Source of the DNA: Lactifluus volemus
Lineage: Eukaryota; Basidiomycota; Agaricomycetes; Russulales; Russulaceae
Assembly (NCBI GenBank): GCA_022376515.1
Contig: WTXI01000145.1
Span: 1-64,000 of the forward strand
Length of the DNA: 64,000 nucleotides
Direction of reading: 5' to 3'
The translations under genes were made by a program, and so were the position numbers. Position 1 is the first letter of the stretch, and every line of letters begins with the position of its first letter. Under the pieces are notes generated by a model. That model was not told the origin of the DNA and made no database searches. It saw only the letters and a program-made list of their open reading frames with translations. Of this stretch, positions 10,841 through 63,506 are shown piece after piece.

Positions 10841-11098
10841 ATGCGCTTCTCCGTCTTCACTCTCCTCATTGTGTTTCCTGCTGCAGCCTATGCAGCTGTA
10901 TGTCCCCAACAGTTTTCGATTAAACCCGCATGCGGTTTACTCGGCGATGTCTGCGACGATGAATTTCCGTGCTGTAGCCCTTTGATATGCGGGGCTGGCC
11001 CGGGCTTGATTACAGTATGTGCCATTGCATACTATCATGATTCCCTCAGTCTTATGATGAACACTGAAATTGAACAGCAATGTGTTATTGGACATTGA
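10841..11098 (+). CDS. A1: secreted knottin-like cysteine-rich protein (64 aa)
   Basis: First of 11 paralogs. Exon 1 is 10841-11014, the intron 11015-11077 (63 nt, GTATGT..CAG) and exon 2 11078-11098. The signal peptide is MRFSVFTLLIVFPAAAYAA. The mature part has C21, C31, C38, C44, C45, C50 and C60, with the last six spaced x6, x5, x0, x4, x9: the C-C-CC-C-C order of inhibitor-cystine-knot folds. The last Cys comes from exon 2 (QC, then VIGH, stop). Unspliced reading also stays open, because 63 is a multiple of three and the donor GTATGT itself reads Val-Cys. The 3' UTR carries AATAAA at 11249-11254. The protein is presumably exported and disulfide-folded. Its target is unknown, and no toxin activity is implied by the fold alone. 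Confidence 0.8.
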   Translation: MRFSVFTLLIVFPAAAYAAVCPQQFSIKPACGLLGDVCDDEFPCCSPLICGAGPGLITVCAIAYYHDSLSLMMNTEIEQQCVIGH

Positions 11099-11399
11099 AT
11101 CAGCAAGGCGTGTGCGGGAACTTTCAAGAACTGGCTGTGATGAAGTTGAGGCGTGGTGCTCTTGTCGAGTGGAATGGCAGGCGTCCCTCTATTGCGACGC
11201 GCATGAGAGTGGGTTAGAGGGAGTTGGGCCATTGCTCTTCTGTATGGAAATAAATTTTCTTCAATACTGTTTGAAGAAAAGCAAACTGCTACCTTTTGTA
11301 GTGCGGAGACGTGTTCAATTTGTCGAGCATGAGGGTGGTTGTTTTCGTAAAAAATCTCTAGTAAGGGGGCAAGAACCGCCGATGCCAGCCTCGTGTCTG

Positions 11400-12540
11400 G
11401 CGCACATTAGGTGTGTATACTACTTTCTATCCACCAAGTTATTTTTTCCAACACACCCAACAGGCTCTCCCTCCCAGAAACCATTTTAATGGCTAGATCG
11501 TCGACTCAGAGAAGTCAGACAATGATGTCGCAACCTCCCTTGCAATACACATTTAGGGAAATTGCGTCAACGGGGTCCCACAAGACGCCTTTGGACATCA
11601 CCAAAAAAAAAAGAAGACTGGCCTGCCAATCGTGCAACTGTCAGACAGAAAAACAGTGGAGGCATGGGTACAGTTACATGACCACAACCAAGCTACTTGT
11701 ACACGACATGTCGCATTTCTGCATCAGTGGAACAGATAACTTTGGTGTCACATGTGCAGCCCAAAGGCAGCAGCAGGAAGGACAATACAGGGATAACCAA
11801 AAAAATGAATGAATGTCATTGAGTTCGACCGAGCGTAGGATGGTGTGAACGGAGAGCCAGAAAATGGAAAGGAAGCACGTGAAATGGTGAATGAACAGCC
11901 ACTGGCACCATCACGTGAAAGGAGAAACGAACGCGGGCGGCCACACGGACAACCACACGGACAGGGTTTGCTGGTCTTCACATTATTCGTAATGTGCCTT
12001 ATGCTGTTTTATCGGGGTCAGTCAAAGCTGCGCCGGTTGAACAACTCGCCCCACTTATAATTGCTGGCACGCAGTCGTGCAAGGTTGTCCAGGTGCTGTC
12101 CCCTATGTCGGTGGTTTCCCGCGCAGGTGATCTGACCGCAATCTGTATGTGAGAGAGTCAACATCCGACCAATAATGGGTCACCGTGGTGCACATTCCGC
12201 GTCGAAGGGCTTCGTTGACAAAAACTCGAAGGTATAGCCAAGATCGTCCAAGTTCCAATTTTCATTTACTAGTAGCTTCATTGATTTTCTGTGGGTTTCT
12301 CAAATGTAAAAACCCCTGTAAACTGAAATGCTGAGGTACTAATGCGCCTTGTTTGTGCGCGCCGCATCATGATGGACAGTGTCCTCAAAGGTAGCTGCGC
12401 GGACTCTGGCATGGAGAACGGCGCCCAAGATCACAAGTAGGTGGATACAAATAAAAACATCTATCGTATTATGTACATACAACATAAACCCCCTTTCGTA
12501 ACACCATGACGACGCTGTCGTTGGTCATATGCATTAAATG
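11400..12540 (+). repeat. C1 module: leader, short ORF and non-coding tail
   Basis: Begins with the leader also found before 7516. An ATG at 11490 opens an ORF to 11812 (MARSSTQRSQTMMSQPPLQ..). A run of ten A's near 11602-11611 shifts the frame relative to other copies. The tail includes a stretch reading QGLLVFTLFVMCLMLF, a possible membrane or signal segment, near 11965. Function unknown. In all copies the ORF is short or broken. Confidence 0.55.
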
Positions 12541-12583
12541 ACATCGTAAAATCAAAAGTATGAAGAAGCGTGCAGAGAAAGGG

Positions 12584-13770
12584 CTAATTAATGTGTGTGA
12601 ATGTGTGTCCCTTCCAAATCGAGAGAGCAAGCGAAAAAGCCTTTTTCATTAAAGTTAAAAGAGAGGCGATCATAACGGAAAGCAATAACGTGAGAGGCGG
12701 GATCGCGCGATGCAATGCGCCACTCGAATGTGCGCTTCCTGAGCCCGTGACGCTCGCGCTCACAGAACCGATCGTGCGAGTCAGCACGCCCTCTGCGTCA
12801 ACCAAACTCTGCGCGTTTGACGCAAGTGTGGCAAAGCCGACGGAAGCCGGATTGGCACGGAACACGCTGTACACGTTCTTCAAGAACGTATCTCCGACGA
12901 TCCATGCAGGCGAGTTGTTGTTCGAAGTATACTCGAAGATCGCGCCAAGACATTGCCCATCCGAGAGCTCGGTTACTTCAAAGTCGGCCGGAGAGATGGA
13001 CCAACTCTTGCCGCCGAAAGAGAGGGCGACGTTAAAGGTCGTAGAACATGCTGCGGAAGATTTATCAGCACACAAAATGGCAAAGAATACTACCAGTGGG
13101 ATAGGGTGGGAATGTAACGACGTACGATAGGTGCAGTAATTGCCAGTGGCAGGAGAAGAATTGGGGATCTGCGCATATAGGGCACTGACTTGCGCTGCAG
13201 GTCCACCAATAAGCGTTGTTCCCGTATCGATCGCAGCGTACGAGGATGAGCCGGAGGGCAGTGTTATAGATCCAGAATTCACGGTTAGGCTCGTGATTGG
13301 AAGGGTCCAGTATGAAACCGCATCTGAGGGAACAGATTGAAAATCTATTTGGCCCGTATAGAGAGACGAGTTGGTCGTTCCTGTCATGAGACATACAATA
13401 GGCTTCGGGAGACGGCGGAGCGACGCTGGGGCCAACCCAACATGAAAACTCCTCCAGTCTCATTTGGTTGGGGGCTCGATGCGTTCTGGAACCGCGTGAG
13501 ATAGAAGGCCATGACTGGCTCATCAAACACGTTACCCTGGTACAAAGATTGCCAGAAGGGGGTGGCACCCGAAGATGCCAGCTGTTGCCAGCCAAGGCCC
13601 ATGAGTCCTGATACGGGCGCACTTAACAGACCACTGGAGATATCGTTGCATACACCTGTGAGGATTGTTACTTGACAATAAGTGACATGAGCTACTTTAA
13701 GGACGTACCAAAGACCTGATTTTGAACCTGAAAGTCGGCCATTTGGACCACGAAGTGTTCTTCGGGCTAC
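12584..13770 (-). pseudogene. P1: C-terminal and central part of GPI-type aspartic protease
   Basis: Minus-strand pepsin-family (A1) sequence with plausible introns: DFQVQNQVFG, intron, ISSGLLSAPVSGLMGLGWQQ, FMLG, intron, GTTNSSLYTGQIDF, the second catalytic motif AIDTGTTLIG, CTYP, intron, CSTTFNVALSFGG, PAWIVGDTFLKNVYSVF, then a Ser/Gly-rich tail and a hydrophobic C-terminus typical of a GPI-anchor signal. The stop is at 12586-12584. The reading frames are well kept, but the N-terminal half is not upstream on this strand: it lies inverted at 13795-14145, so the gene as arranged cannot make a full protease. Confidence 0.8.
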
Positions 13771-13794
13771 AACCTGTGCGCACCTTTTCCCTTT

Positions 13795-14985: not shown

Positions 14986-15236
14986 ATGCGCTTCTCCGTC
15001 TTCACTCTCCTCATTATGCTTCCTGCTGCAGCCTATGCAGCTGTATGTCCCCAACAGTTTTCGATTCAATCCGTATGCGGTAAACTCGGCGATTGGTGCG
15101 ACAATGAATTTCCGTGCTGTTCGGGTTTGGAGTGCGAGCGTGTTGGCTATGAAAATGTATGTGCCATTGCGTACTATCATGATTCCCTCAGTCTTATGAT
15201 GAACACTGAAATTGAACACAGAGCTGTGTTATTTGA
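14986..15236 (+). CDS. A2: secreted knottin-like protein (61 aa)
   Basis: Exon 1 is 14986-15156, the intron 15157-15221 (65 nt) and exon 2 15222-15236. Exon 2 supplies SCVI and the stop. The spacing after the N-terminal Cys is x9, then x6, x5, CC, x4, x8. The TATA box is at 14902. Reading without splicing gives a 277-codon frame running through the AATAAA site, which I take as fortuitous. Confidence 0.8.
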
Positions 15237-18459: not shown

Positions 18460-18707
18460 ATGCGCTTCTCCGTCTTCACTCTCCTCATTGTGCTTCCTGC
18501 TGCAGCCTATGCAGCTGTATGTCCCCAACAGCTTTCGATTCAACCCGAATGCGGTGAACGCGCCGATTACTGCGACGAGGAATTTCCGTGCTGTGGCCGT
18601 TTGAAGTGCACGTGGAATGGCTATGGTCAAGTATGTGCCATCGCGTCCTATCATGATGCCTTCCGTCTTATGATGAACACTGAAATTGAACACAGGAATG
18701 TGCTTGA
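18460..18707 (+). CDS. A3: secreted knottin-like protein (60 aa)
   Basis: Exon 1 is 18460-18630, the intron 18631-18695 (65 nt) and exon 2 18696-18707, giving ECA and the stop. Charged loops (GERADY, DEEFP, GRLK) differ from A1 and A2. The unspliced frame runs to 18816. It is followed directly by the 3' flank and then methyltransferase copy M2, with no C module between. Confidence 0.8.
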
Positions 18708-19139: not shown

Positions 19140-20202
19140 ATCGCTAGACTCGTGCCAGTGATGCAAATCAAGAAACAATATCCTTTGATCTTGACGAGAT
19201 GACCAGATCCACGGGCCATCGCGTGCTCGTGCTTTTGTTTTTTCTCTGAGCAAAAAGACTGATGAGACATAGCACCATAAAATTTGTGGGACAGCGGAAT
19301 AGGTCTGCCAGTGGGTGCGTGGCTTGTTCGTCTTTTGGTCACGACCGATCATGGTGCTGCTGCTGCTGCTACGGTATCGGCATCCGAATCCGAATCGTAG
19401 CCTGCTAGTGGTGATCTTGGACCTGGAATCGTGGTTCAGGAGCTCAGAGAGAGGTTGGCCTTGCGCGAGCAATGTTGCATTATTGAATTAGGTGAGCCTT
19501 TTCCTGTTCATTCCTCGTTTCATTCTGTCAGGTCTCCGGTTCACGTACTGTACATGATAGGTGCTGGGACTGGGATAGTCTCGACAGCCCTTGCCGCGCT
19601 GCGCCCGACTGATCTTGCCTCGCAGCGCATGATACCTGTATACTCTCCACAGACCCTCGTGAGTCTCTTCCATCCCAATCCAAATCTTCTTCAACCAGCA
19701 TCGTTGCAATCATTTTTTTGTAGCGTCTTCGATGGAGCTTATGAGCTACAATATACATGAAAACACCACACTTTACCCCCATTGCCCCTCGACCTTATCG
19801 CGTAAGCTATGATTCCCTTCTTATCGCATCCTAACGTTTCCTCTATTATTATTATTTTTCAATAGGATGGCAGACGTGACGTACAACACGTCATCCTTTC
19901 CAGCCCTGCTCCGGACACTCACCTCTCTTCTCGCGTTGAGCGATCATCGTCGTTAACGCATGGCCGGACCCGCTGCGCACGAACCAATTGACGGGCCACT
20001 GGTCTTATTGGCGTACAAGGGACGTGATCCAGGAGAGCGGCAGCTCTGGGACATGATGGTGCGCGAGACGGGCGTTGTGCTCGAGTGCGTTGGGAAGCAG
20101 GCTGGCGCGGGAGGGCTTCCCGTCGAGATGTGGCTCGGGAAGATGGCACTTACCCACCTCTTTACTGGTCACGCAAATTCGCAGACTGTGCCGAGATCAT
20201 AG
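19140..20202 (+). pseudogene. M2: truncated, broken METTL21-like methyltransferase
   Basis: Starts abruptly at 'gtgatgcaaatcaa', joined to knottin 3' flank. The exon with FRLFGDDGG is missing. SVWDSGIG..SAWLVRLLV is in frame, but a TAG at 19398-19400 stops it. The SAM motif exon, the short MADVTYNTSS exon and the C-terminus are present; part of the WDQELPE exon is deleted near 19780. Confidence 0.75.
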
Positions 20203-21100: not shown

Positions 21101-21341
21101 ATGCGCTTCTCCGTCTTCACTCTCCTCATTGTGCTTCCTGCTGCAGCCTATGCAGCTGTATGTCCCCAACAGCTTTCGATTGAACACGGATGCCGTGAAT
21201 TCGGCGAACTCTGCGACAAAGAATTTCCGTGCTGTTTGGGTTTGGAGTGCGTGTGGGTTGGCTTTGTTAAAGTATGTGCTATCATGATTCCCTCAGTCTT
21301 ATGATGAACACTGAAATTGAACACAGAAATGTGAATTTTGA
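21101..21341 (+). CDS. A4: secreted knottin-like protein (61 aa)
   Basis: Exon 1 is 21101-21271, the intron 21272-21326 (55 nt, ten shorter than in A2/A3) and exon 2 21327-21341, encoding KCEF and the stop. Since 55 is not a multiple of three, the unspliced frame ends after SVL. Splicing restores the final Cys at the same place as in the other copies. The TATA box is at 21017. Confidence 0.8.
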
Positions 21342-26144: not shown

Positions 26145-26388
26145 ATGCGCTTCTCCGTCTTCACTCTCCTCATTATGCTTCCTGCTGCAGCCTATGCAGC
26201 TGTATGTCCCCAACAACTTTCGATTGAACCCGAAAAATGCGGTGAACTCGGCGAACTCTGCGACAAAGAATTTCCGTGCTGTGACGGTTTGGAGTGCGTG
26301 TGGGTTGGCTTTGTTAAAGTATGTGCTATCATGATTCCCTCAGTCTTATGATGAACACTGAAATTGAACACAGAAATGTGAATTTTGA
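26145..26388 (+). CDS. A5: secreted knottin-like protein (62 aa)
   Basis: Exon 1 is 26145-26318, the intron 26319-26373 (55 nt) and exon 2 26374-26388, giving KCEF and the stop. It has one extra Lys before the second Cys (IEPEKC), so the first spacing is x10. Otherwise it is close to A4. Confidence 0.8.
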
Positions 26389-28760: not shown

Positions 28761-28998
28761 ATGCGCTTCTCCGTCCTCACTCTCCTCATTGTGCTTCCTG
28801 CTGCTGCCTATGCAGCTGTATGTCCCCAGCAGCTTTCGATTCAATCTGTATGCGGTGAACGCGGCGATTCCTGCGACCCTAAACATCCGTGCTGTGGCCG
28901 TTTCCTGTGCACGTGGAATGGCTTTTTTTATGTATGTGCCATTGCGTACTTTCCTTCCATCTTATGAACTCCGAAATTGAACACAGGAGTGTAGTTGA
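28761..28998 (+). CDS. A6: secreted knottin-like protein (60 aa)
   Basis: Exon 1 is 28761-28931, the intron 28932-28986 (55 nt, with a different deletion from A4/A5) and exon 2 28987-28998, giving ECS and the stop. The mature loops are GERGDS, DPKHP and GRFL. The TATA box is at 28677. It is followed directly by M4, an arrangement duplicated as A9-M6. Confidence 0.8.
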
Positions 28999-33943: not shown

Positions 33944-34230
33944 ATGCGATTCTCCGCCCTCACTCTCCTCATTGTGCTTCCTGCTGCAGCCTATGCAGCT
34001 GTATGTCCCCCACAGTTTTCGATTCAATCCCGATGCGGTGATTTCGGCGATTTCTGCTACAATGAACGTCCGTGCTGTCCGGGTTGGGAGTGCGAGCAGT
34101 ATGTATGTGCCATTGCGTACTATCATGATTCCCTCAGTCTTATGATGAACACTGAAATTGAACACAGAAATGTGTTGTTGGAAATTGGATCAGCAAGGCG
34201 TGTGCAGGAACTTTCAAGAACTGGCTGTGA
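33944..34230 (+). CDS. A7: secreted knottin-like protein with C-terminal extension (73 aa)
   Basis: Exon 1 is 33944-34102, the intron 34103-34167 (65 nt) and exon 2 34168-34230. The final knot Cys follows after only four residues (EQYK). A base change of the usual TGA to TGG lets exon 2 read on for 16 more codons, adding another Cys (SKACAG) before the stop. It is the most divergent mature sequence (YNERP, PGWE). Confidence 0.72.
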
Positions 34231-36067: not shown

Positions 36068-37235
36068 CTAATTAATGTGTGTGAATGTGTATCCCTTCCA
36101 AATTGAGAGAGCAAGCGAAAAAGCCTTTTTCATTAAAGTTAAAACAGAGGCGATCATAACGCAGAGCAATAGCGTGAGAGGCGGGATCGCGCGATGCAAT
36201 GCGCCACTCGAATGTGGGCTTCCTGAGCCCGTGACGCTCGCGCTCACAGAACCGATCGTGGGAGTCCGCATGCCGCCTGCGTCAACCAAGCTCTGCGCGT
36301 TTGACGCAAGTGCGGCAAAGCCGACGGAAGCCGGATTGGCACGGAACACGCTGTACACGTTCTTAAACGTATCTCCGACGATCCACGCAGGCGAGTTGTT
36401 GTTCGAAATATACTCGAAAATCGCGCCAAGACATTGCCCGTTCGAGAGCTCGGTCAATTTAAAGTCGGCCGGAGAGATTGCCGCCGAAAGAGAGGGCGAC
36501 GTTAACGGTCGTAGAACACGCTGCGGAAAGTTTGTCAGCACACAAAATGGCAAAGAATACTGCCAGTGGGATAGGGTGGGAATGTAACGACGTACGATAG
36601 GTGTAAGATCCTTGATAATTGCCAGTGGCAGGGGAAGAATTGGGAATCTGCGCATATAGGGCACTGACTTGCGCTGCAGGTCCACCAATAAGCGTTGTTC
36701 CCGTATCGATCGCAGCGTACGAGGATGAGCCGGAGGGCAGTGTTATAGATCCAGAATTCACGGTTAGGCTCGTGATTGGAAGGGTCCAGTATGAAACCGC
36801 ATCTGAGGGAACAGATTGAAAATCTATTTGGCCCGTATAGAGACGAGTTGGTCGTTCCTGTCATGAGACATACAATAGACTTCGGGAGACGGCGGAGCGA
36901 CGCTGAGGCCAACCCAACATGAAAACTCCTCCAGGCTCATTTGGTTGGGGGCTCGATGCGTTCTGGAACCGCGTGAGATGGAAGGCCATGACTGGCTCAT
37001 CAAACACGTTGCCCTGGTACAAAGATTTCCAGAAGGGGGTGGCACCCGAAGATGCCAGCTGTTGCCAGCCAAGGCCCATGAGTCCTGATACGGGCGCACT
37101 TAACTGACCACTGGAGATATCGTTGCATACATCTGTGGGGATTGTTACTTGACAATAAGTGAGATGAGCTACTTAAAGGACGTACCAAAGACCTGATTTT
37201 GAACCTGAAAGCCGGCCATTTGGACCACGAAGCGT
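36068..37235 (-). pseudogene. P3: C-terminal and central part of aspartic protease
   Basis: Same order as P1 on the minus strand, including MGLGWQQ, AIDTGTTLIGG and the GPI-type tail. A deletion near 36478 removes the KSWSISPADF start, and another (36364) shortens FLKNVY. It keeps a longer QGSYTYR segment than P1. Confidence 0.78.
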
Positions 37236-41169: not shown

Positions 41170-41414
41170 ATGCGCTTCTCCGTCCTCACTCTCCTCATTG
41201 TGCTTCCTGCTGCAGCCTATGCAGCTGTATGTCCCCAACAGCTTTCGATTCAAGTCGAATGCGCTAGACGCGGCGCTTTCTGCGACAGCGATCATCCGTG
41301 CTGTGGCCTTTTGGATTGCAGTTGGAATGGCTTTTCTATGGTATGTGCCATTGCGTACTATCATGATTCCCTCCGCCTTATGAACTCCGAAAATGAACAC
41401 AGGAATGCACTTGA
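41170..41414 (+). CDS. A8: secreted knottin-like protein (60 aa)
   Basis: Exon 1 is 41170-41340, the intron 41341-41402 (62 nt) and exon 2 41403-41414, giving ECT and the stop. The final Cys is written TGC here and TGT elsewhere, a synonymous change. Loops are ARRGAF, DSDHP and GLLD. Confidence 0.8.
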
Positions 41415-46080: not shown

Positions 46081-46206
46081 CACCACATGATTTAGCCTAC
46101 AGTATCTAGTACCATGTATGACCATATTCCATGTTTGTTGTTTTTTTGGTAAGATCTGCAAAACAGCGTGTTTGTCACGCCTGCCTATCGGAGTCTAACA
46201 TATGGC

Positions 46207-46361
46207 AAATGACGTGTGGATGTGACGTCACCCAACATCGTACATTATAACGAGTTATCACATGTATTATGACCGGCCCAAGTACTTAAACAGGCCAGTT
46301 AGGCCACTATAATATTATCTTATCTTGTCCCCTTTCTACTGTCACGCTCTGTCAACGAACT
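46207..46361 (+). repeat. Copia 5' LTR (155 bp)
   Basis: Identical by eye to 52929-53083. Contains a palindromic TGACGTCA at 46223-46230. The end bases are set by the ATGGC duplication; they are not TG..CA, so the limits could be off by a base or two. Confidence 0.85.
46223..46230. promoter_or_regulatory. CRE-type site TGACGTCA in LTR
   Basis: A perfect 8-bp ATF/CREB palindrome, repeated at 52945-52952 in the 3' LTR, about 630 bp upstream of knottin A9. Confidence 0.5.
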
Positions 46362-49300
46362 GGTTATGGGCCCTGCGCTCACAGACTGACCAACACCGTC
46401 GCCTGTCCTTACTCGCGCTTAGAACTTCTTCATTTTATATAATACAACCGACACGTTATGCAATCAATAATGTCTTCAGCCACGAATCAGGCACAGCCAT
46501 CAACGAATCAGTCATCGACCAGCACGAATCAAGCGGGCGCAAGCACCCAATCAAATACAAACACCACAACTCAACCAAATGTCCCTACACAACCCGCCTT
46601 CCCAAGCCGTCCCATACTCTCCCCGGACGATATCCCCCAACGCCTATGTTCATTTCCGACCCTACATGGCCATCATCCCTCACACTTGATTTGCAACGAT
46701 CCAATTGGCCCGAATGGAGCCGCCGTCTCGAACTTCTTGCCAATCGACAAGGCCTATTCCCATGGTTGAACGGCACACTAGCCTGCCCAGATCCTGCGAT
46801 TGTCAGCCCCAAGATATGCTGGGTCTGGTGGACCAACGATAGTTCTCTCCGCTCCTTTATCCTACAACACGTCTCATCCTTCGACTACAACATCGCAGAC
46901 AAATTCCCGACCTCTTCCCTTGCCTACGCAGCTCTCCGCAAACGTCACGAGCAACTCGGCACGCACGCTCAAGCTCACCTTATGAAACAAATTATGGACA
47001 CGCAGTTTATGCCTGGGACTCCACTTATGGACACCGCCACAAAGATCAATGGCCTGCACGAATCGTTTGTCAAGATGGGAACTCCGGACTTTGACAAAAT
47101 GCACTGCGCCTGGCTCGTCAACGCCGCCTCCCAACATTTTCGCTCACTCCAATCATCATTACAAGCCCTCACTCGTGATCCATCCTGCACCCCTCAGACA
47201 ATACTTGCCCGCCTTCAAGACGAAGATGACCTCCACCACCGCCGTACCGCTCACGGCTCCCAAGACGACTCGGCAATCGCCCTGCTAGCTCGCCCCAACA
47301 ACCCTTTCCGTAACGTTATTTGCTTAAACTGTAAGCGTCCTGGACACACGAACGATTTTTGCGTTCGGGTGGGTGGAAAGATGGCTGGCCAAACGCTCGA
47401 TGAAGCCCGCGCTGCTCAAGCCCGTTTCCTAGCACGCCGCAACACTCGCACCGCAACTTCCAATCATTCGGCTCATATAGCCACCACCACTTCGACCGAC
47501 GCCAAACCGACCGCCACTGCCTCTACGGGAGCCCCACCGGCTGCCCCCAATAACGTTGTGATTAACGGAGTAACTTACACCTTTGTTCCTGTGCAGTCCA
47601 GCGTTGCTCCGTCCGAACCGACCCAACAAACACCTTCACCTATTACGGATCTCACCAATCTCCCTCAAACGCCGCTAAGCATCGACTCCGGTGAATCGTG
47701 GGAGGCACTTCTCGCGTTTGCTGATGACGACGTTCTCGACACCACAAGCTACGCTTTCACTACCGATTCCGACGCGGTAATTCATTCTTCTGATGCCACA
47801 CCGTTTATTCTCGACACGGGCGCAACCTGCCATATCTCACCGGTACGCTCCGATTTTCGCGTTCTTTACCCAATTTCCCCCAGAGCCATTAAAGGCCTGG
47901 GTAATTCCTGCGTCTTTGCTAATGAAATGGGGACGGTGGATATCCCTCTCACGAGTGGACAAATGCTAACCCTCTCCAATGTCCTATACATTCCTAATTC
48001 ACGTGTCCGCCTGCTCTCAGTATTAACCCTAAACCGCCACGACAGCGTCTCAACACACTTTGATGCCAACTCATGTTGGATCACTGATGCTTCTGGCTCC
48101 ATCATTGCTACAGGTGTACTCCTAAAATCTCGCAATCTGTACGTACTCTCAACAGCAAGAACAAGTCTGCGCGCTCCGTTACAGTCTCCGCCACCGCATG
48201 AACAAATCTTCGTCTCGCAAAGCATTCCGAATCTCAAAACGTGGCACCGTCGCCTCGGTCATTGCAACATCCAGACGGTCCTGGATATGGCCCGTGCACG
48301 CGTCGCCGATGACATGCCAATCGACTTATCAACTTTCCCTGCAAAATGCACCGCCTGTATTCTCGGCAAACAAAGCCGCAGCTCAATTCCCAAAATTCGC
48401 GAAGGTCCGAAATCGACGGAGAAGTTGGAGCAAGTTTATATAGATCTTTGTGGCCCGATGTTATCACCCTCCCGGGCGGAAAACCGTTACATCATGAATA
48501 TTATTGATGACTATTCTAGCTTTAGCTGGACTATCCCCCTGAAACGAAAGGACGACGCTATTCTCGCGCTTCTGCCCTGGCACAAAGCTGTCGAGAGTCA
48601 GAGCAAATCGAAGCTGCGTTCGATCATCACCGACAACGGCGAGCTAGTGAATTTCATTTCGAAGGCCTGGTGCGATAAGTATGGTATTATTCACTACACC
48701 ACCGCGCCCTACACGTCTCTGCAAAATGGCAAAGTAGAACGACTGCACCGAACGATCGTTTCCCGCGCCCGCGCTATGCGACTCGCGTGCCGCGCACCCG
48801 ACGACCTCTGGGACGAATTTTGTCTCACCGCGGGTTATCTCACAAACTGCGTCTCCACCACCGCACTCAAAGGAAAAACACCGTTCGAGCTCTGGTTTGG
48901 CCGTCGCCCGTCGTTTTCCCATCTGCGCGAAATCGGCTGTGCTGCCTACTCTCTCGTACACAACCAACCGAAGCTACTTGCACGTTCAACACCTTGTATC
49001 CTAATCGGTTATACACATCAATTGAAGGCATATCGCCTCTGGGACCCTGAATCCGACTGTGTTTTTGATTCCTTTCATGTCTCATTCATTGAACACCTTG
49101 ACAGCACTCCAAGACCATATCGACCAGGAAAGATCCTTAATAACGACAAACCGACGCCGCCAGCAAACACGAACGACAACGCAAACCGCAACGACCAGCA
49201 ATCACCGCCCGCAAACAACGCCGCTCAACCGTTTGTCCAACCACCCGTCACCGTATCCGCCCGAACCAGCCTTCCCACCATTCTACCACCGATTTCCGCC

Positions 49301-51223
49301 ACTTCTCCTCAACAAACATTTGACCCGCTCCCCACTGCTCAACTCCCGACAACTCCGACAACTTCACACACGACCGCCGCACCACCTCCAAGATCCGCTC
49401 CGACTACTCGACCTCCCGCATCCCCTTCAAGATCACATCTGACAACTTTCGACCACAGTACAACGCAACCAACACCAAACGACAACACCGCCAACCCCGC
49501 CAAAATTCCCCCCATCGTTATCCCTGCATGTATACCTGACCCACCCACGAATCAATCCCTTACGATAACAACTACTGTACAAGAAACGATACCCAATACT
49601 ATAGCCCCACCTTCCCTTACAGAACAACCAACTGCTTCTCATTTACGTATAACTTCTTCTGCGGAACAACCCACCGCTTCGTCCTCTACTTTACAAACAA
49701 ACACACCTAATTCTTCTGTGAATACTTCTGCGGAACAGCCCACCGCCACAACTCCTACCTTAAATGCTACTGTACCTACGCTTAGACGTTCCTCTCGAAT
49801 ACCCATCCCTACTTCCCATAACCCTCTTTTTGATAGCCGTCTCGCCGCCGCTGTCGCTGATAGCTCGGCAGCCAGTGTCCGCCGCAAGGCGGCACGCGAA
49901 ACAAACTCTGCCACCGATGCTCGTACCACTGCAATGCTTGCGGAATTCTATCCGCTCCGTGATTCGCATTTCCTAATACCACTAGACCTGCCCACGCTTC
50001 CGCTGCCCATCGACGAATTGCTTGCGGCACTCTCCGACGGCTCCGCAGACCCCTGCCTTCCGACTGACGACGACCCCTCCTGGGCTGAAGCGCTCGCTTC
50101 CCCGGAACGCGAGTTCTGGATTGCCGGCGGCCGCGACGAGTTACAGAGCCTGAAAGACTTGAACGTCTTCGTGCTCGTCCCGCGCTCCCACGTACCTCCC
50201 GGACAGCGTCCCTTGAAAGGAAAGCTCGTCTGCAAACGGAAACGCGATGGCGCCGGGAACATCACGCGGTACAAAGTACGGTACATCGCGAAAGGGTATG
50301 CGCAACAATACGGCATCCATTATGACAAGACTGCTGCACCCACGACCCGACTTGAGTCGTTCCGCGCGTTACTACACATCGGCGCCACACTCGATTGGGA
50401 TGTCCAACAGTTTGACGTAAAGACTGCCTTTCTCCACGGCGTCCTTCCTGCAGGGGAGACGATGTTCCTCGAACAGCCCCCCAGCTTCGAAGAGCCTGGA
50501 AAGGAAGGGTGGGTTATGCACCTGATGAAGAGTATTTACGGGATGAAGCAGGCAAGTCGTGTCTGGAACGCCACTTTTGACAGCGCCGTCCGGGAATGGG
50601 GCTTTACGCGCCTTCCCTGTGAGTGGTGCGTCTACCGACGCCAGTCCACGACGGGTACGATCCTGTTTGCCGTCCACGTAGATGATATCATTTCGGTTGC
50701 ATCATCTTCGGATGAGAATAAGCGGTTTCAATCATTGCTGACCTCTAGGTGGGACATATCTGCGCTCGGCGCTGCCAAGTTCGCTCTTGGAATAGCGATC
50801 TCCCGTGATCGCACAATGCGGACCGTCTCGCTATCACAAACAGTCATGATCGATCGCTTACTGGACAGCTTTGGGCAACTCAACGCGCGCCCCATTGACA
50901 CACCTATGGTCGTCGGCCTACAGCTCGAGCGTCCTGACAAGACAGCTCCAGTTGATCCCCTCGTCTCGGAGTGGGCCACTCGCACGCCATACCGCGAGCT
51001 TATCGGGAGCCTCATGTACATCGCCATAGGCACGCGCCCAGACATCGCCTTCGCTGTCAGCAAACTTGCCTCATTCCTAGATTGTTATCGCCCCGACCAT
51101 TGGGAAGCTGGCATCCGTGTCCTACGTTACCTAAAAGGCACTCGCTCCCTCGCTGTTACGGTTATGCAGGCCGCCCGGCCCATTTCTTACTGTTCTCCGT
51201 CTGATTTTCGACTTGTGTTGTGA
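46325..51223 (+). CDS. Copia Gag-Pol, interrupted before RNase H
   Basis: The open frame of 1632 codons starts inside the LTR, so its first codons are probably not used. A second frame from 46458 (MQSIMSSATNQAQ..) looks like the real S/T/N/Q-rich Gag start, which implies a frame change near 46640-46690. Residue positions in the long frame are: CCHC zinc knuckle CLNCKRPGHTNDFC at about 336; protease DTGATC at 497; integrase HRRLGH with CTAC at about 641-680; integrase core Asp 707, Asp 770 and Glu 805; RT with FDVKTAFLHG and the catalytic HVDD at about 1451. The frame runs into the inserted solo LTR at 51154 and stops by chance at 51223. Confidence 0.88.
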   Translation: MSPFYCHALSTNWLWALRSQTDQHRRLSLLALRTSSFYIIQPTRYAINNVFSHESGTAINESVIDQHESSGRKHPIKYKHHNSTKCPYTTRLPKPSHTLPGRYPPTPMFISDPTWPSSLTLDLQRSNWPEWSRRLELLANRQGLFPWLNGTLACPDPAIVSPKICWVWWTNDSSLRSFILQHVSSFDYNIADKFPTSSLAYAALRKRHEQLGTHAQAHLMKQIMDTQFMPGTPLMDTATKINGLHESFVKMGTPDFDKMHCAWLVNAASQHFRSLQSSLQALTRDPSCTPQTILARLQDEDDLHHRRTAHGSQDDSAIALLARPNNPFRNVICLNCKRPGHTNDFCVRVGGKMAGQTLDEARAAQARFLARRNTRTATSNHSAHIATTTSTDAKPTATASTGAPPAAPNNVVINGVTYTFVPVQSSVAPSEPTQQTPSPITDLTNLPQTPLSIDSGESWEALLAFADDDVLDTTSYAFTTDSDAVIHSSDATPFILDTGATCHISPVRSDFRVLYPISPRAIKGLGNSCVFANEMGTVDIPLTSGQMLTLSNVLYIPNSRVRLLSVLTLNRHDSVSTHFDANSCWITDASGSIIATGVLLKSRNLYVLSTARTSLRAPLQSPPPHEQIFVSQSIPNLKTWHRRLGHCNIQTVLDMARARVADDMPIDLSTFPAKCTACILGKQSRSSIPKIREGPKSTEKLEQVYIDLCGPMLSPSRAENRYIMNIIDDYSSFSWTIPLKRKDDAILALLPWHKAVESQSKSKLRSIITDNGELVNFISKAWCDKYGIIHYTTAPYTSLQNGKVERLHRTIVSRARAMRLACRAPDDLWDEFCLTAGYLTNCVSTTALKGKTPFELWFGRRPSFSHLREIGCAAYSLVHNQPKLLARSTPCILIGYTHQLKAYRLWDPESDCVFDSFHVSFIEHLDSTPRPYRPGKILNNDKPTPPANTNDNANRNDQQSPPANNAAQPFVQPPVTVSARTSLPTILPPISATSPQQTFDPLPTAQLPTTPTTSHTTAAPPPRSAPTTRPPASPSRSHLTTFDHSTTQPTPNDNTANPAKIPPIVIPACIPDPPTNQSLTITTTVQETIPNTIAPPSLTEQPTASHLRITSSAEQPTASSSTLQTNTPNSSVNTSAEQPTATTPTLNATVPTLRRSSRIPIPTSHNPLFDSRLAAAVADSSAASVRRKAARETNSATDARTTAMLAEFYPLRDSHFLIPLDLPTLPLPIDELLAALSDGSADPCLPTDDDPSWAEALASPEREFWIAGGRDELQSLKDLNVFVLVPRSHVPPGQRPLKGKLVCKRKRDGAGNITRYKVRYIAKGYAQQYGIHYDKTAAPTTRLESFRALLHIGATLDWDVQQFDVKTAFLHGVLPAGETMFLEQPPSFEEPGKEGWVMHLMKSIYGMKQASRVWNATFDSAVREWGFTRLPCEWCVYRRQSTTGTILFAVHVDDIISVASSSDENKRFQSLLTSRWDISALGAAKFALGIAISRDRTMRTVSLSQTVMIDRLLDSFGQLNARPIDTPMVVGLQLERPDKTAPVDPLVSEWATRTPYRELIGSLMYIAIGTRPDIAFAVSKLASFLDCYRPDHWEAGIRVLRYLKGTRSLAVTVMQAARPISYCSPSDFRLVL
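46362..46378 (+). other. Copia primer-binding site, initiator tRNA-Met anticodon region
   Basis: GGTTATGGGCCCTGCGC is complementary, with one mismatch, to the anticodon arm of fungal initiator tRNA-Met (..GCGCAGGGCUCAUAACC..). This indicates half-tRNA priming as in Drosophila copia and not 3'-end priming. Confidence 0.7.
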
Positions 51224-52089
51224 CCTAGGATCCCTTTCCTTGGCCAGCCCCTTCTCTTCCGCTTCTAGGGGCTGTGCGTCGCCGTTTTGGACGTGTATTT
51301 GACTCAGGGATCATGACTCAGATCTTGAGTCAGCGTTCTTGACTCAGATCTTGAGTCAGACACACTGAGTCAGTTCTTGAGTCATCAGAACTGACTCAGG
51401 TCCTTAGTCAATAGTCTTGACTTCGCTACTGTACTGTGACCTTTGTAGGATAGTTGGCTGGCCCTCTGTACGCATAAATAGGGCCCTGTAGACGAGCTAA
51501 AGCCCCAGCTTCAGCTTCGTCTAGAATCGCAGTTCGTTGTCTCCTGCTCACACTCGCATCGCATCTCCTCCTCTCTTCTTGTGAAACCCCTCTTCGTACC
51601 TTGATCCAGGTACTTCGCGCCACGATCAGACATCTGTGAACTTGTTCCATTTCCGTGTAACAAGTCCCCAGACGCCTGAACCCTAATACGAACGCGCTGT
51701 GAGAAGTAGTCCCCACTTCTCACCCCGCGTCCGCCCTCGAACCTTAGTTCAACCTCTCACGAGTGTCCTTGGAAGGCGAGCATCCCTTGCATTCCAATTG
51801 CACTCGCGCCCGTGTTGCGGTTGAACCCACACATTGTCATTAACCCATCTGCCACCGTCTATCCCTTTTGGGAACGGTAAACTCCGACCATCGCGTGCGC
51901 CGGTCCGCTAGTCCGTCTCGCGCGATACAGACACCCAGAGTTCGCACAGTCAAGTCTACTCCACACAGGACCTTGCCTGCGCGTGCTAGAATCGACTATT
52001 TGGTGTTGCTAGTCTTGTCCGACTTGCCACAGCAAATAGCCAACCAGAACTACGCTCACTTCGAGCCACGGTCCCTGCGAACCGTGACA
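51154..52089 (+). mobile_element. Solo LTR of another retrotransposon (936 bp)
   Basis: Starts TGTTACGGTT and ends AACCGTGACA, an imperfect inverted repeat with TG..CA ends. It is bounded by a perfect 5-bp duplication CTCGC (51149-51153 and 52090-52094). No coding region is inside. A TATA-like CATAAATA is at 51473-51480. Removing it with one duplication copy returns the copia polyprotein frame. Confidence 0.92.
51300..51398. promoter_or_regulatory. Cluster of eight TGASTCA (AP-1/Gcn4-type) sites
   Basis: Exact 7-mers start at 51300, 51314, 51326, 51340, 51352, 51366, 51378 and 51392, spaced 12-14 bp apart, about 75 bp before the TATA-like box. This is a bZIP-responsive enhancer layout inside the solo LTR. 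Confidence 0.75.
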
Positions 52090-52641
52090 CTCGCCCTCGT
52101 CCTCGGTGGCAAACTATCAACATCACTATCCGGTTATTCTGACTCAGACTATGCCAACTGCCCTACCACCAGCCGTTCCATTTCTGGCTACATTTTTACC
52201 CTTGGCTCTGGAGCAATTTCCTGGTGCTCCCGAAAGCAGAAAACCGTCGCCGATTCATCATGCTACGCGGAGTACATCGCGCTCCATGAGGCAGCGCAAG
52301 AAACAGTCTTCCTAAGACAACTCCTCGACGGCATCGGCTTTGCGCCCACATCACCTACCACCCTCCGCTGCGATAACGCTGCGGCCACTACTATTGCCGA
52401 AGACCACATCTGGCACTCCCGTATCAAACACATTCGCGTGAAATTTCACTACATTCGGGAACTTATTGCCAACGGCGATGTGACAGTTGCGCGCTGCCAC
52501 TCCGCCGACAATGTTGCCGATATCCTCACCAAGGCTTTGGCCAAACCCACATTTTGCTGTTTGCGATCTGCCCTCGGACTGCGACACTGTGATAGCGACG
52601 ATCATGCCGTGCGGGAGGAGAACTGCAGTGCCAACACGTAG
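52090..52641 (+). pseudogene. Copia RNase H domain, cut off from its polyprotein
   Basis: GYSDSDYANCPTTSRS, SGAISWCSRKQKTVADSS, AEYIAL, LRCDNAAA and KHIRVKFHYIRE are standard copia RNase H blocks. In frame with the upstream part only if the solo LTR is removed. Stop at 52639-52641. Confidence 0.9.
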
Positions 52642-52917
52642 AGTGTTCCCACTGAGGAGGAGCATGGTATGACCCTTTTTCTAACCTGCCTTTCGCCCTG
52701 TGGCACTTATTCTTTCTCTCGCCTATTGGCCCCTTCTTTCTTTCATATCTCGCATTGTCTATTACAATTCGCAACGCTCCTTCATTCGCCTGCCATTGGC
52801 ACCCTTGTGTTTACCCTTATGTTTGTTATCATTGCTCAACGTCATCTGAGCGCCTTTTCCTTCGCCCGCCTCATTGGCACCTTTCTTTGTACTTTGCGGG
52901 TGTTCAGCTTCTGTACG

Positions 52918-52928
52918 ATGAGGAGGAG
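52918..52928 (+). other. Copia polypurine tract
   Basis: GATGAGGAGGAG-type purine run directly before the 3' LTR, in the position where plus-strand synthesis is primed. Confidence 0.55.
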
Positions 52929-53083
52929 AAATGACGTGTGGATGTGACGTCACCCAACATCGTACATTATAACGAGTTATCACATGTATTATGACCGGCC
53001 CAAGTACTTAAACAGGCCAGTTAGGCCACTATAATATTATCTTATCTTGTCCCCTTTCTACTGTCACGCTCTGTCAACGAACT
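52929..53083 (+). repeat. Copia 3' LTR (155 bp)
   Basis: No difference from the 5' LTR was seen by eye. Confidence 0.88.
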
Positions 53084-53577
53084 ATGGCGTGTGACGTAAC
53101 GTGACTGCCACGGTTAGTGTCAAGGCACGACTAATCGATTTCGCAAGTCAGCCAACATCACCCATGACGCTATCTTGCCGCTTTACACCACAACCTCCCA
53201 CCATGATTAAACATCATTTAATTCGTACAGTTTTGCATGAAATCCGTACTCCAAGCGCAAACGCGCGTTGCGCCGGCCAGTAAGTAGTCCATGCCTCGTT
53301 CGTGCCAGGAATAGGATCTTTCGCTAGCGTCCTGCCAGCGGCCTGTCAATTGTGTGTCCCCGAGTTGATCATGAGGCTCTCGCTCTCTCCACCAGGCACT
53401 ATTGAGTCTCGAACGTGTTCGGAATCGTTTCCGGGTGAATGCGCTAGTCTGAAACTTTAATCGTACTGCGTACCGTTTGAAATTGCCTGGAGCTATAAGA
53501 AGAGGACGATGGACGAAGTGGAATGGCAGCATTACTCGCCATCAATTCGATTTGCTCTTGAAACAAACATAACCACC

Positions 53578-53822
53578 ATGCGCTTCTCCGTCCTTACTCT
53601 CCTCATTGTGCTTCCTGCTGCAGCCTATGCAGCTGTATGTCCCCAACAGCTTTCGATTCAAGTCAAATGCGGTGAACGCGGCGATTACTGCGACGAGAGA
53701 CATACGTGCTGTGGCCGTTTGAAGTGCGAGTGGACTGGCTATGGTCAAGTAAGTGCCATCGCGTACTATCATGATTCCCTCCGCCTTATGAACTCCGAAA
53801 ATGAACACAGGGATGTGCTTGA
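53578..53822 (+). CDS. A9: secreted knottin-like protein (60 aa), GTAAGT donor
   Basis: Exon 1 is 53578-53748, the intron 53749-53810 (62 nt) and exon 2 53811-53822, giving GCA and the stop. The donor is GTAAGT, not GTATGT, so unspliced reading would give Ser where the other copies give Cys. The spliced product keeps all seven cysteines. The TATA box is at 53494; a copia element lies just upstream. Confidence 0.82.
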
Positions 53823-57264: not shown

Positions 57265-57506
57265 ATGCGCCTCTCCGTCTTCACTTTCCTCATTGTGCTT
57301 CCTGTTGCAGCCTATGCAGCTGCATGTCCCCTTTCGATTCAAGTCGAATGTGTTGAACGCGGCGATTTCTGCGACGAGGAATTTCCGTGCTGTGGCCGTT
57401 TGCAGTGCACGCGGAATGGCTTTTCTACAGTATGTGCCTTTGCGTACTATCATGATTCCCTCAGCCTTATGATGAACACTGAAATTGAACACAGATATGT
57501 GAATGA
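57265..57506 (+). CDS. A10: secreted knottin-like protein (58 aa)
   Basis: Exon 1 is 57265-57429, the intron 57430-57494 (65 nt) and exon 2 57495-57506, giving ICE and the stop. Two residues are deleted after the first Cys (CPLSIQVEC, spacing x7). The signal peptide varies slightly (MRLSVFTFLIVLPVAAYAA). The TATA box is at 57181. Confidence 0.8.
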
Positions 57507-60545: not shown

Positions 60546-60699
60546 CCTTTGATAGGCGATAGCCTCAACAAAGATACTGTTCAGACGACCTTTGTCGACC
60601 ATCATGCGGACTATGTTCCTAATATTGATGGCTCAATGGAACTGTCCCTACCGTGACTGCTATGGCGGCACTTGCATGTACGTACGGGGTGAGAGTGGG

Positions 60700-61405
60700 A
60701 TTTCCGAGGAGGATTCCACTGGCCCGTCTGTGCTGGGACTGGGATAGCTCGATAGTCCTTGCCGCGCTGCGCTCGACTAGTCTTGCCTCTGCTGCGCATG
60801 ATACCTGTATAGACCTTCGTGAGTCTCTTCCTTCCCGATCCAAATCTTCTTCAACCAACATCATTGCAATCAGTTTTGGTGGCGTCTTCGATGGAGCTTA
60901 TGAGCTACAATATACATGCAAACTCAACACTTTACCCCCATTGCCCCCCAACCGTGCTTCCCCTGGACCGGGACTAAGAGCTTCCGGAAAGCGTTCTCAA
61001 TACTTGGTGGGTTCGACCTTATCACGTAAGCTATGTTTCCCTTCTTATCACATCCTAACGTTTCCTCTATCATTGTCATTTTTCAATAGGATGGCAGACG
61101 TGACGTACAACACGTCATCCTTTCCAGCCCTGCTCCGGATACTCACCTCTCTTCTCGCGTTGAGCGATCATCATCGTCAATGCGTGGGCGGACCCGGTGC
61201 GCACGAGCCAATTGACGGGCCACTGGTCTTATTGGCGTACAAGGAACGCGATCCAGGAGAGCGGCAGCTCTGGGATATGATGGTGCGCGAGATGGGCGTT
61301 GTGCTCGAGTGCATTGGGAAACAGGCTGGTGCGGGAGGCTTCCCGTAAAGATATGGCTCGGCAAGAAGGCACGCGACCGCGCCGAGATCATAGTCTGACA
61401 AACTG
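60700..61405 (+). pseudogene. M7: methyltransferase copy, truncated at both ends
   Basis: Starts inside the SAM-motif exon (ctgggactgggata..) fused to single-copy sequence. It keeps the SSMELMSYN-type exon and the MADVTYNTSSFPALLRIL exon. Small deletions near 60746 and 61337 break the frame, and the C-terminus is lost. Confidence 0.75.
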
Positions 61406-61489
61406 CCTCCACACATCTTCTCTCTGTCACGGAACCCAATCATCAGGTGCTTTTACCGTAAACTGGACAGTTTTCAAAGGTCGGGGCAC

Positions 61490-62450
61490 TGATCATGTGA
61501 CCTTGTTGATCAACGTGCCGTTTATTTGGAACGTTTTTCACACATCCCTTCATCCTTTGTCAAAATCAAAGGAAGAATTCCCTCGCGGGAATATGTCGTC
61601 ATTTCAGGCCCAAGAGACATACAAGATGTCGGACAGGAAAGCAAGGGTTGCCGAGGCGGCGAAACGTCATGCTGCGCTAATTCTAGGTATGGCCCTATCT
61701 TCTGGGCTTTTTTTTCAACTTACGTTTCTAGATCTGAGCGCCACGCCGCCGCCGACCGAGCCAACATTGAACCAAAGACTGATAATCCAAGCTCTGACAT
61801 CATCGCCGAGTCGTGGAAGCTAGTACGAAAGGAATTGAATGTTTAATGGCAGCTGGTACGGCGGCCATTAAGTGTTGTGAGTGTTTGTGAAGTTACCTTT
61901 CCTACCTCATTCAAATTTAATGATCTTCCCTCATCGTTTTCATCGGTTCACCCTTGCGTAGAACGATTGCCTACCTGACTACTTGAGGACAAGAGGATGC
62001 GCATAAGGGATTGCAGATTCACCTAGCTCTAAAGAATCTCGCTGGGATTACCGAAGTGGACTGTTGCCTTGTCCTCTCCCCTTTGCCATCCGTTACTTGG
62101 ACAGAGCGCTTTCAACAAATCTTTTCTTGTCATCGGATCCAGTCTTCAGATGCTTGGGTCTGTAACTGAACTGCTTTCAAGTTATGATCTACAGAGCGAT
62201 GAAGCCCACCAACAAGTAGATTTTTTATTATTAAATCGCTTGTCATCCTGATTCGCTGAGTTTGACGGACTTACAGGACCCGGTGGGCGAAGTCAACCTC
62301 CACGAGTTCTTCAGGCACGAAAGTGGGAGAGTAGGACGATGCTGACAATAAAAGAGGCCGGTAATATCACATTGGCAGTGGAACATACCACAAAGAGAAT
62401 AAAGACTGTAAGCTCAGCCTTTGCATGAGCACAGCGAACAACTGGGACGT
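61490..62450 (+). pseudogene. B8: long copy of module B
   Basis: MSDRKARVAEAAKRHAALIL at 61626, an intron to 61731, then IIAESWKLVRKELNV near 61800-61846 and the VDCCLVLSPLPSVT block near 62060. It provides the empty site for the Helitron at 62451. Confidence 0.45.
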
Positions 62451-63269
62451 CTTGAATTAGGTATAAACCGTCAGGTTTGCATCATGATCCTCACACATGA
62501 CTTGACACGTTCGGTCTAGCGATGTTCACCTCCACTTGTACAACAATAATCGCATGAACCTGAGATTAACCGCTTCGAGCCAATGTGCCCGTGGACCGTG
62601 GCCCGGCAGCATCATGCTAACTCTGTGAACAGACCCCCTTTGTGAACACCCCAATTTCCTCACTCAATTATCGCTCAATCACCACATAATTCAGCCTACA
62701 GTATCTAGCATGTATGACCATATTCCATGTCGTTTTTTTTTGGTAGAAATCGTAGTGTGTAAAGAAATGAAAGTCAGCGTGTTTGTCACGCCTGCCTGTC
62801 GGAGTTTACAATCTGACAGTACCACTGATATATGGCGTGCAACGTAACGTGACTGCCACGTTAGGCGACTAAACCGACTTAACACGTCGGCTTCCCCGCC
62901 AACATCACCCAAGCCGCTATCTTGCCGCTTTACACCATCATTTAATTCATACGGAATCCGTACTCCAAGCACAAATGCGCGTTGCGCCAGCCAGTAAGTG
63001 GTCCATGCGTCGTTCGTGCCAGAATCGGATCTTTCCGATTCTTTCGCTACCACGTCCTGTCAGTGTCCTGTCAATTGTGTATCCCCGAGTTGATCTATTG
63101 AGTCTCGAAATGTGTTCCGAATCGTTTCCGGGTGAATGCGCCAATGTCTCAAACATTCTGCGTACCGTTTGAAATTGCCTGGAGCTATAAGAAGAGGACG
63201 ACGGACGAAGTGGAGGGGCAGTATTACTCGGTATCGATTCGATTTGCTCTTGAAACAAACACAACCACC

Positions 63270-63506
63270 ATGCGCTTCTCCGTCCTCACTCTCCTCATTG
63301 TGCTTCCTGCTGCAACCTATGCAGCTGTATGTCCCCAGCAGCTTTCAATTCAGGCCGGATGCGGTAGACGCAACAATTTCTGCAACGATGAATTGCCGTG
63401 CTGTGGCCGTTTGATCTGCGTGCCAGTGTTGGGTGTATGTCATCGCGTATTATCATGACTCCCTCCGTCTTATGAACTCCGAAACTGAACACAGCGATGT
63501 TGGTGA
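63270..63506 (+). CDS. A11: secreted knottin-like protein (58 aa)
   Basis: Exon 1 is 63270-63434, the intron 63435-63494 (60 nt) and exon 2 63495-63506, giving RCW and the stop. Loops GRRNNF, NDELP and GRLI; the last spacing is x6 (VPVLGR). The signal has Thr for Ala (PAATYAA). The TATA box is at 63186. Confidence 0.8.

What the first reader, a model, noticed from the sequence alone, without database searches (positions are those of the whole stretch)
10841..63506. Eleven-copy array of secreted knottin-like proteins
Seen: eleven genes in 53 kb share a signal peptide and a seven-cysteine mature part whose last six cysteines keep C-x6-C-x5-CC-x4-C-x(4-9)-C. Known: this order is the inhibitor-cystine-knot pattern of plant, animal and some fungal peptides. 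Inference: a lineage-specific, recently amplified effector or defence peptide family. No function is proven, and an array this dense in a fungus would be unusual.
Basis: partly seen in the sequence, partly recalled or inferred. Interest (0 to 1): 0.92.

Follow-up and report, generated by a model that had tools for sequence, protein, structure and literature searches.

The report
Hypervariable knottin gene array in milk-cap mushroom
A forest milk-cap mushroom carries a cluster of near-copy genes for tiny secreted peptides that keep the cysteines of a cystine-knot scaffold while the rest of the peptide changes unusually fast, much as in cone-snail and spider toxin families, which suggests a contest with another organism.

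Summary
Eleven tandem genes (10841-63506, +) lie in Lactifluus volemus, an ectomycorrhizal milk-cap. Each encodes a signal-like N-terminus and a mature part C-x6-C-x5-CC-x4-C-x(4-9)-C, but only after removal of a 55-65 nt intron. The "Val-Cys" of the open frame is the GTATGT splice donor; the real last cysteine lies in a mini-exon, x-Cys-(1 or more residues)-stop. This fits 29 of 30 copies in the genome; the exception is frameshifted. The other haplotype holds 15 copies. Mature codons diverge 2-3 times faster than intron and flanks (omega 3.2-3.8), signal and cysteines hardly at all. Related proteins occur in Russula, Lactarius and Lactifluus: 100 of 112 retrieved keep the five-cysteine core, with a near-constant signal and very variable mature part. 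A family profile finds 18 PDB sequences, all of them, as I know them, knottin-type. Against: only 1 of 8 deposited gene models from this genome uses this intron; no structure, transcript or function was available. Best reading: a conotoxin-like, positively selected knottin superfamily acting outside the cell on a co-evolving foreign target (tree root, or consumers and competitors; undecided). Fungal knottins are known; my searches listed no paper on this family.

The parts
10841..11098 (+). knottin gene copy 1: exon 1 10841-11014, intron 11015-11077 (GTATGT..GAACAG), exon 2 11078-11098 (QCVIGH stop)
14986..15236 (+). knottin gene copy 2: exon 1 14986-15156, intron 15157-15221, exon 2 15222-15236 (SCVI stop)
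18460..18707 (+). knottin gene copy 3: exon 1 18460-18630, intron 18631-18695, exon 2 18696-18707 (ECA stop)
21101..21341 (+). knottin gene copy 4: exon 1 21101-21271, intron 21272-21326 (10 nt shorter than in copy 2), exon 2 21327-21341 (KCEF stop)
26145..26388 (+). knottin gene copy 5: exon 1 26145-26318, intron 26319-26373 (10 nt shorter than in copy 2), exon 2 26374-26388 (KCEF stop)
28761..28998 (+). knottin gene copy 6: exon 1 28761-28931, intron 28932-28986, exon 2 28987-28998 (ECS stop)
33944..34230 (+). knottin gene copy 7: exon 1 33944-34102, intron 34103-34167, exon 2 34168-34230 (20 codons with an eighth cysteine, then stop). The deposited NCBI model P0013 equals these two exons read one after the other
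41170..41414 (+). knottin gene copy 8: exon 1 41170-41340, intron 41341-41402, exon 2 41403-41414 (ECT stop)
53578..53822 (+). knottin gene copy 9: exon 1 53578-53748, intron 53749-53810 (donor GTAAGT, Val-Ser if read through), exon 2 53811-53822 (GCA stop)
57265..57506 (+). knottin gene copy 10: exon 1 57265-57429 (lacks the QQ pair), intron 57430-57494, exon 2 57495-57506 (ICE stop)
63270..63506 (+). knottin gene copy 11: exon 1 63270-63434, intron 63435-63494, exon 2 63495-63506 (RCW stop)
10757..10762 (+). TATAAG 84 nt before the ATG of copy 1; a TATAAG/TATAAA match lies 83-85 nt upstream in 28 of 28 array-type copies of both haplotypes

Best explanation
A tandem array of two-exon genes, each with its own TATA box, makes small secreted cystine-knot peptides. 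The signal peptide sends them out of the cell (inferred from sequence). Six cysteines form the knot and the loops between them form the binding face (inferred by likeness to knottins). Gene duplication plus positive selection on the loops (shown by sequence comparison) keeps a changing panel of ligands. I infer that each peptide binds and blocks an extracellular protein of another organism that evolves in response: a root-surface or apoplastic protein of the tree host, or a target in animals or microbes that attack or compete with the fungus. The sixth knot cysteine is encoded in a mini-exon, so splicing makes the mature form (inferred from comparison, not from transcripts).
For: Two-exon model: phase-0 donor GTATGT, GTAAGT or GTATGC, intron 52-65 nt, exon 2 = x-Cys..stop in 29 of 30 copies, two distant paralogues included; the exception has an upstream 1-nt deletion. 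Column variability falls to about zero at the donor and jumps at the acceptor to NNN-TGY-NNN-TGA (.59 .62 .34 | 0 0 .15 | .70 .70 .59 | 0 0 0). A deposited model (P0013) has the same exons. Mean pairwise distance, 27 copies, 351 pairs: 5' flank .086, signal .036, mature exon 1 .226, intron .079, exon 2 .295, 3' flank .099. Mature pN/pS 1.88, codon bootstrap 1.22-2.99; ML omega 3.28, lnL -1114.1 against -1129.7 at omega 1; one haplotype at a time 3.23 (15 copies) and 3.81 (12 copies), all with two misaligned tails masked (unmasked 1.85 and 3.52, 3.20, 4.37). TATA box in 28 of 28 array-type copies. Profile matches 18 distinct PDB sequences, all knottin-type by name. 100 of 112 retrieved proteins keep the five-cysteine core.
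Against: No transcript or protein evidence and no structure model. Of 8 deposited L. volemus models retrieved, 1 (P0013) uses this intron; P0029 and P0042 read through the donor, P0003 reads through it and splices later, and P0004, P0010, P0011, P0012 splice elsewhere. No window copy reaches a Pfam cut-off. Seven cysteines leave one unpaired or intermolecular. The codon model has 40 codons and more parameters than sites (warning), and gene conversion may inflate omega. Lactarius-pine symbiosis showed only few induced small secreted proteins (PMC8417538, passages), which weakens the root version.
Confidence: 0.66

Rival explanations
1. Symbiosis effector: the peptides act mainly on the tree root during ectomycorrhiza formation, like other mycorrhiza-induced small secreted proteins. 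(A special case of the best explanation.)
For: The genus is ectomycorrhizal (own knowledge); known fungal knottins Avr9 and MLP124266/AvrP4 are plant-facing (passages read); the relatives found belong to ectomycorrhizal genera where a species is named.
Against: Lactarius-pine transcriptomes found only few induced small secreted proteins (PMC8417538, passages). No expression data here.
Confidence: 0.38
2. Defence peptides: the knottins act on fungus-eating animals or on competing microbes, like spider, plant or insect knottins. (A special case of the best explanation.)
For: Nearest PDB relatives by profile carry names of arthropod, sponge and plant knottins; PF07740 'ion channel inhibitory toxin' is precomputed on P0016, P0024, P0032, P0034, P0061 and P0072; a constant signal with a variable mature part resembles venom families.
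Against: Knottin likeness says nothing about the target; the similarity is weak (best PDB E-value 3.2e-4) and short.
Confidence: 0.36
3. The genes are single-exon: the long open frames (62 to 277 aa in the window) are the proteins and the Val-Cys behind the core is real.
For: The frame is open through the donor in the listed ORFs, and Val-Cys falls at knot spacing. Two deposited models, P0029 and P0042, are read this way.
Against: The 'Cys' is Ser in 4 of 27 array copies, each as GTAAGT. Among 57 hand-picked relatives 55 have the Val, followed by Cys 39, Arg 6, Gly 5, Ser 4, Tyr 1: 54 of 55 are residues that NGT can encode. 10-nt and 7+3-nt deletions behind the donor shift the frame in at least 6 of 27 copies. 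Variability drops at the donor and rises again at the acceptor.
Confidence: 0.06
4. Another acceptor is used, for example (C)AAG further on, giving an end such as ACAGTFKNWL, as in some deposited models.
For: P0004 and P0010 end in ..CAGTFKNWL. With the same donor this acceptor gives x-Cys in 23 of 29 copies.
Against: Fails in 6 of 29: W21101 (Cys to Phe), H153468 (no site), H151862, H128840 and both distant paralogues, where the ACACAG-type model fits 29 of 29. The stretch evolves at flank speed, not at mature-peptide speed. P0004 and P0010 use donors that differ from each other.
Confidence: 0.06
5. The array is mostly dead: a segmental-duplication product without function.
For: Neighbouring protease and methyltransferase-like pieces look fragmentary; one copy (C119:53120) is frameshifted.
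Against: 29 of 30 copies have intact exons and splice sites, the TATA box is kept, and the selection pattern needs expressed protein.
Confidence: 0.05

Closest known systems
Fungal knottin effectors: Avr9 (Cladosporium fulvum) and MLP124266/AvrP4 (Melampsora)
   Same: Small secreted six-cysteine knot proteins of fungi; MLP124266 belongs to a family of 13 members (PMC6889267, passages)
   Different: Different lineage; their letters were not compared here; in this family one tandem array, a seventh cysteine, the last cysteine on a mini-exon, and strong positive selection
Histoplasma 'Fungi1' knottin family
   Same: Expanded family of small secreted six-cysteine proteins in a fungus (PMC4503680, passages: 30 transcripts in the S8 Fig legend)
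   Different: Ascomycete animal pathogen; the Fungi1 alignment was not available, so no membership test
Conotoxin and spider-toxin superfamilies
   Same: Constant signal peptide, conserved cysteine frame, fast-evolving mature loops (their side recalled)
   Different: No propeptide seen; fungal; little sequence kinship beyond the cysteine frame: at E 1e-3 Toxin_12 matches 2 of 67 members, Toxin_35 1, Toxin_30 1, Conotoxin 1
Wrightide R1 (plant knottin; alpha-amylase inhibitor as I recall)
   Same: Best PDB match of a single copy, C-x6-C-x5-CC-x4-C spacing identical
   Different: E-value 0.22 with one sequence, 0.006 with the family profile; 30 residues, without the extra N-terminal cysteine

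Membership tests
Inhibitor cystine knot (knottin) fold | Six cysteines in the order C..C..CC..C..C with knottin-range spacings | tested here: met
   11 of 11 window copies after splicing, 29 of 30 copies overall; the two distant paralogues have C-x5/6-C-x6/8-CC-x5-C-x6-C. As unspliced frames 10 of 11
Inhibitor cystine knot (knottin) fold | Sequence-profile match to solved knottins | tested here: met
   18 of 18 distinct PDB sequences at E 1 or better are knottin-type by name (recalled), best 3.2e-4, only the first four below 0.01. An earlier profile (A3) gave 5, one of them a big defensin matched partly in the signal region
Inhibitor cystine knot (knottin) fold | Disulfides C1-C4, C2-C5, C3-C6 and the threaded ring | not testable with these tools
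   Structure prediction busy, then switched off
Pfam Toxin_12 (PF07740) | Score above the curated cut-off of 21 bits | tested here: not met
   Best window copy 15.4 bits (10 copies, the eleventh)
Conotoxin-like diversification (analogy, not kinship) | Constant signal, variable mature part, dN/dS above 1 | tested here: met
   family level, 66 rows: signal identity .78, mature non-Cys .33, five core Cys .99
Histoplasma/Avr9 'Fungi1' knottin family | Match to the Fungi1 alignment | not tested
Mycorrhiza-induced small secreted protein | Induction in root tips | not testable with these tools
   No expression data

The most novel reading that the evidence does not exclude
Russulaceae have evolved their own counterpart of a conotoxin system: one constant secretion signal and one knot scaffold with a library of rapidly selected, possibly receptor- or channel-directed loops, kept as a tandem array that differs between the two haplotypes of one individual, with the knot completed only by splicing in a mini-exon.
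Probability: 0.4. Interest if true: 0.82.

Novelty: new variant of a known kind. Interest (0 to 1): 0.66.

Why it matters
Russula, Lactarius and Lactifluus are among the most species-rich ectomycorrhizal mushrooms (own knowledge), and what they secrete at the host or consumer interface is little known. A large, positively selected knottin superfamily gives a concrete set of genes to test, offers a natural library of likely stable peptides, and suggests that venom-like peptide evolution arises in mushrooms. It also offers a reason why automatic annotation handles these genes badly: the last cysteine lies in a mini-exon of a few codons, and 7 of 8 deposited models retrieved here miss it.

Tried and rejected
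Structure prediction of the mature peptide (alignment A3) and of the deposited spliced model (A4) was never accepted; I used sequence-profile comparison with the PDB instead. A search of the own genome with an alignment was not accepted, so single proteins were used. A search of bacterial and archaeal genomes with A6 could not be built; with one window protein 531 stretches matched a pattern and none encoded a relative. Pfam and NCBIfam gave no assignment for window copies. Idea: cysteine codons are specially protected, as proposed for conotoxins (recalled). The six exon-1 cysteine codons have mean pS about 0.11 against 0.13 for the mature part: no support. Idea: Val-Cys at the donor is a useful back-up cysteine on intron retention. 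Ser, Arg and Gly there in relatives argue against. Literature: ten searches listed no paper on this family, judged from titles and starts of abstracts; the library holds open-licence papers only. Passages were read in PMC4503680, PMC6889267, PMC10356791, PMC8417538 and PMC9632046; no paper was read whole.

Rows and filters: the distance and omega tables use 27 of 30 copies (left out: frameshifted X53120 and the two C223 paralogues). In the alignment the last exon-1 codons of W63270 and H198343 are out of register; included them, repeats the tests with them masked. skips columns with fewer than 14 letters. Copy 53578 is in A1 but not in A2, A3, A4 or A6. A6 uses 57 of 112 retrieved proteins, picked by hand. 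One search prints only synteny blocks of at least 900 bp and 95% identity.
Full report
What it is in. Deposited proteins from this locus are named Lactifluus volemus, and their contigs have the same lengths as two contigs of the window's assembly, 375271 and 1741901 bases. The window is contig C52:1-64000 of a 62.4-Mb assembly. The taxon belongs to the Russulaceae.

Observation. Eleven copies were found, all on +. Read as open frames they carry a signal close to MRFSVxTLLIxLPAAAYA, then AVCPQQ.., then C-x6-C-x5-CC-x4-C-x(n)-VC in 10 of 11; copy 53578 reads VS. The frames then run on for very different lengths, 62 to 277 aa, which is odd for copies so alike in DNA.

Gene structure. The DNA alignment shows why. 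Val-Cys is GTATGT and Val-Ser is GTAAGT, both usual fungal splice donors (general knowledge). Behind it lies a stretch with 10-nt and 7+3-nt deletions, ending in ACACAG (GAACAG in copy 1, ACAAAG in one copy of the other haplotype). In the frame set by a phase-0 intron the next codons are x-Cys, one or more residues and a stop: for example ICE, ECA, KCEF, SCVI, RCW, GCA. Over the copies known in this genome this holds in 29 of 30; the exception, C119:53120, has an upstream 1-nt deletion. The two distant paralogues on contig C223 follow the same rule. Variability per column drops at the donor and rises sharply at the acceptor, with fixed TGY and TGA between variable codons. A rival acceptor further on, (C)AAG, gives x-Cys in 23 of 29 copies and fails in 6, both distant paralogues among them.

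Deposited models. Eight L. volemus models came back. One (P0013) has exactly these two exons. P0029 and P0042 read through the donor, P0003 reads through it and splices later, and P0004, P0010, P0011 and P0012 splice elsewhere. They disagree with one another, so I take them as automatic guesses, but I could not see whether any rests on transcripts.

Extent. Contig C190, 113.6-199 kb, is the other haplotype: blocks of at least 900 bp (only those at 95% identity or more were printed) run collinear with C119:45001-64904 and then with the window at 95-98% identity, and C119 ends and C52 starts at the same C190 base, 133549. Haplotype A has 15 copies, haplotype B 13, one frameshifted. Copies 28761, 33944 and 41170 have no difference in mature exon 1 from their nearest C190 copy; for 10841, 53578 and 57265 the nearest differs at 24, 9 and 12 sites. 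Assembly errors in such a repeat array cannot be excluded. Outside the array these searches found only the two-gene locus on C223 (counts there are lower bounds).

Selection. Over 27 copies and 351 pairs the mean distances are 5' flank .086, signal .036, mature exon 1 .226, intron .079, exon 2 .295, 3' flank .099. With the misaligned ends of two copies masked, mature distance is .222 and intron .077; mature pN is .241 and pS .128, ratio 1.88, codon bootstrap 1.22-2.99; a codon model gives omega 3.28 (lnL -1114.1 against -1129.7 with omega 1 and kappa 2). Per haplotype omega is 3.23 (-901.1 against -913.5, 15 copies) and 3.81 (-815.5 against -829.7, 12 copies). Unmasked values were 1.85, 3.52, 3.20 and 4.37. 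The alignment is short (40 codons), the program warned of more parameters than sites, and gene conversion was not modelled, so the size of omega is uncertain; the excess over intron and flanks does not depend on the model.

Family. Three protein searches gave 112 proteins, deposited models of this genome included. 100 of 112 have the core C-x5-8-C-x3-9-CC-x3-6-C. Species named are Lactifluus volemus, L. subvellereus, Russula ochroleuca, R. vinacea, R. aff. rugulosa, Lactarius psammicola, L. indigo and L. tabidus, all Russulaceae genera (own knowledge beyond). The single hits of L. indigo, L. tabidus and R. aff. rugulosa lack the core, and the last is not significant (E 0.07). Most hits carry no species name. 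In an alignment of 67 (57 of the 112 plus ten window copies) mean identity over 66 rows is .78 in the signal.33 at non-Cys mature positions and .99 at the five core cysteines. After the core, 55 of 57 have Val, then Cys 39, Arg 6, Gly 5, Ser 4, Tyr 1: 54 of 55 are residues that NGT can encode, as a splice donor would give. I could not read the DNA of these relatives, so an intron there is inferred. A search of bacterial and archaeal genomes with one copy found no relative.

Fold. One copy alone matches Wrightide R1 at E 0.22. The family profile finds 18 distinct PDB sequences at E 1 or better, four of them below 0.01, best Xt3a 3.2e-4; by name all are peptides that I know as knottin-type (ABU8-3 by its likeness to asteropsin). 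A smaller profile gave five, among them a big defensin. Pfam assigns no window copy above a cut-off. No structure model could be made.

Function. Shown by sequence: a signal-like N-terminus, a TATA box at a fixed place (28 of 28 array-type copies), intact exons, positive selection. Inferred: the knot, extracellular action, a co-evolving foreign target. Plant-facing fungal knottins are known (PMC6889267, PMC9632046, PMC4503680: passages), but Lactarius root symbiosis showed few induced small secreted proteins (PMC8417538, passages), so I hold root host and consumers or competitors about equally likely.

Novelty. Fungal knottins and their expansion are known. Ten searches of an open-licence library listed no paper on this family. 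What looks new is the scale and hypervariability in ectomycorrhizal mushrooms, the haplotype-variable array, and the mini-exon cysteine.

Noticed in passing
window 46207-53083: LTR/Copia element: 155-bp LTRs 100% identical, 5-bp target duplication ATGGC (46202-46206, 53084-53088), open frame 46646-51223 with RVT_2 and integrase domains; about 490 bp upstream of knottin copy 9. Its first half has no match in C190:110001-210000; its second half has one 835-bp match there at 90%, so probably a recent haplotype-specific insertion.
   Followed up: partly
window 12584-13387 (-) and 36068-36655 (-): Aspartyl protease (PF00026) matches covering part of the profile; fragments or single exons of duplicated copies.
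   Followed up: partly
window 8808-10237 and repeats near 19159, 24843, 29445, 39087, 54272, 60730: A second repeated unit between the knottin genes; one frame has a weak, sub-cut-off lysine-methyltransferase match (Methyltransf_16, 17 bits against a cut-off of 21).
   Followed up: partly
L021:3770 and L021:9303 (C223:1614770, 1620303): Two distant paralogues with Arg in place of the first mature cysteine and an extra cysteine in exon 2 (LCTDVRCR, GCMPVQC): seven cysteines again, but the odd one at the other end.
   Followed up: partly
window 7516-7812: Open frame with a signal-like start and tandem repeats of the unit SDPNSSIGIGPA.
   Followed up: no
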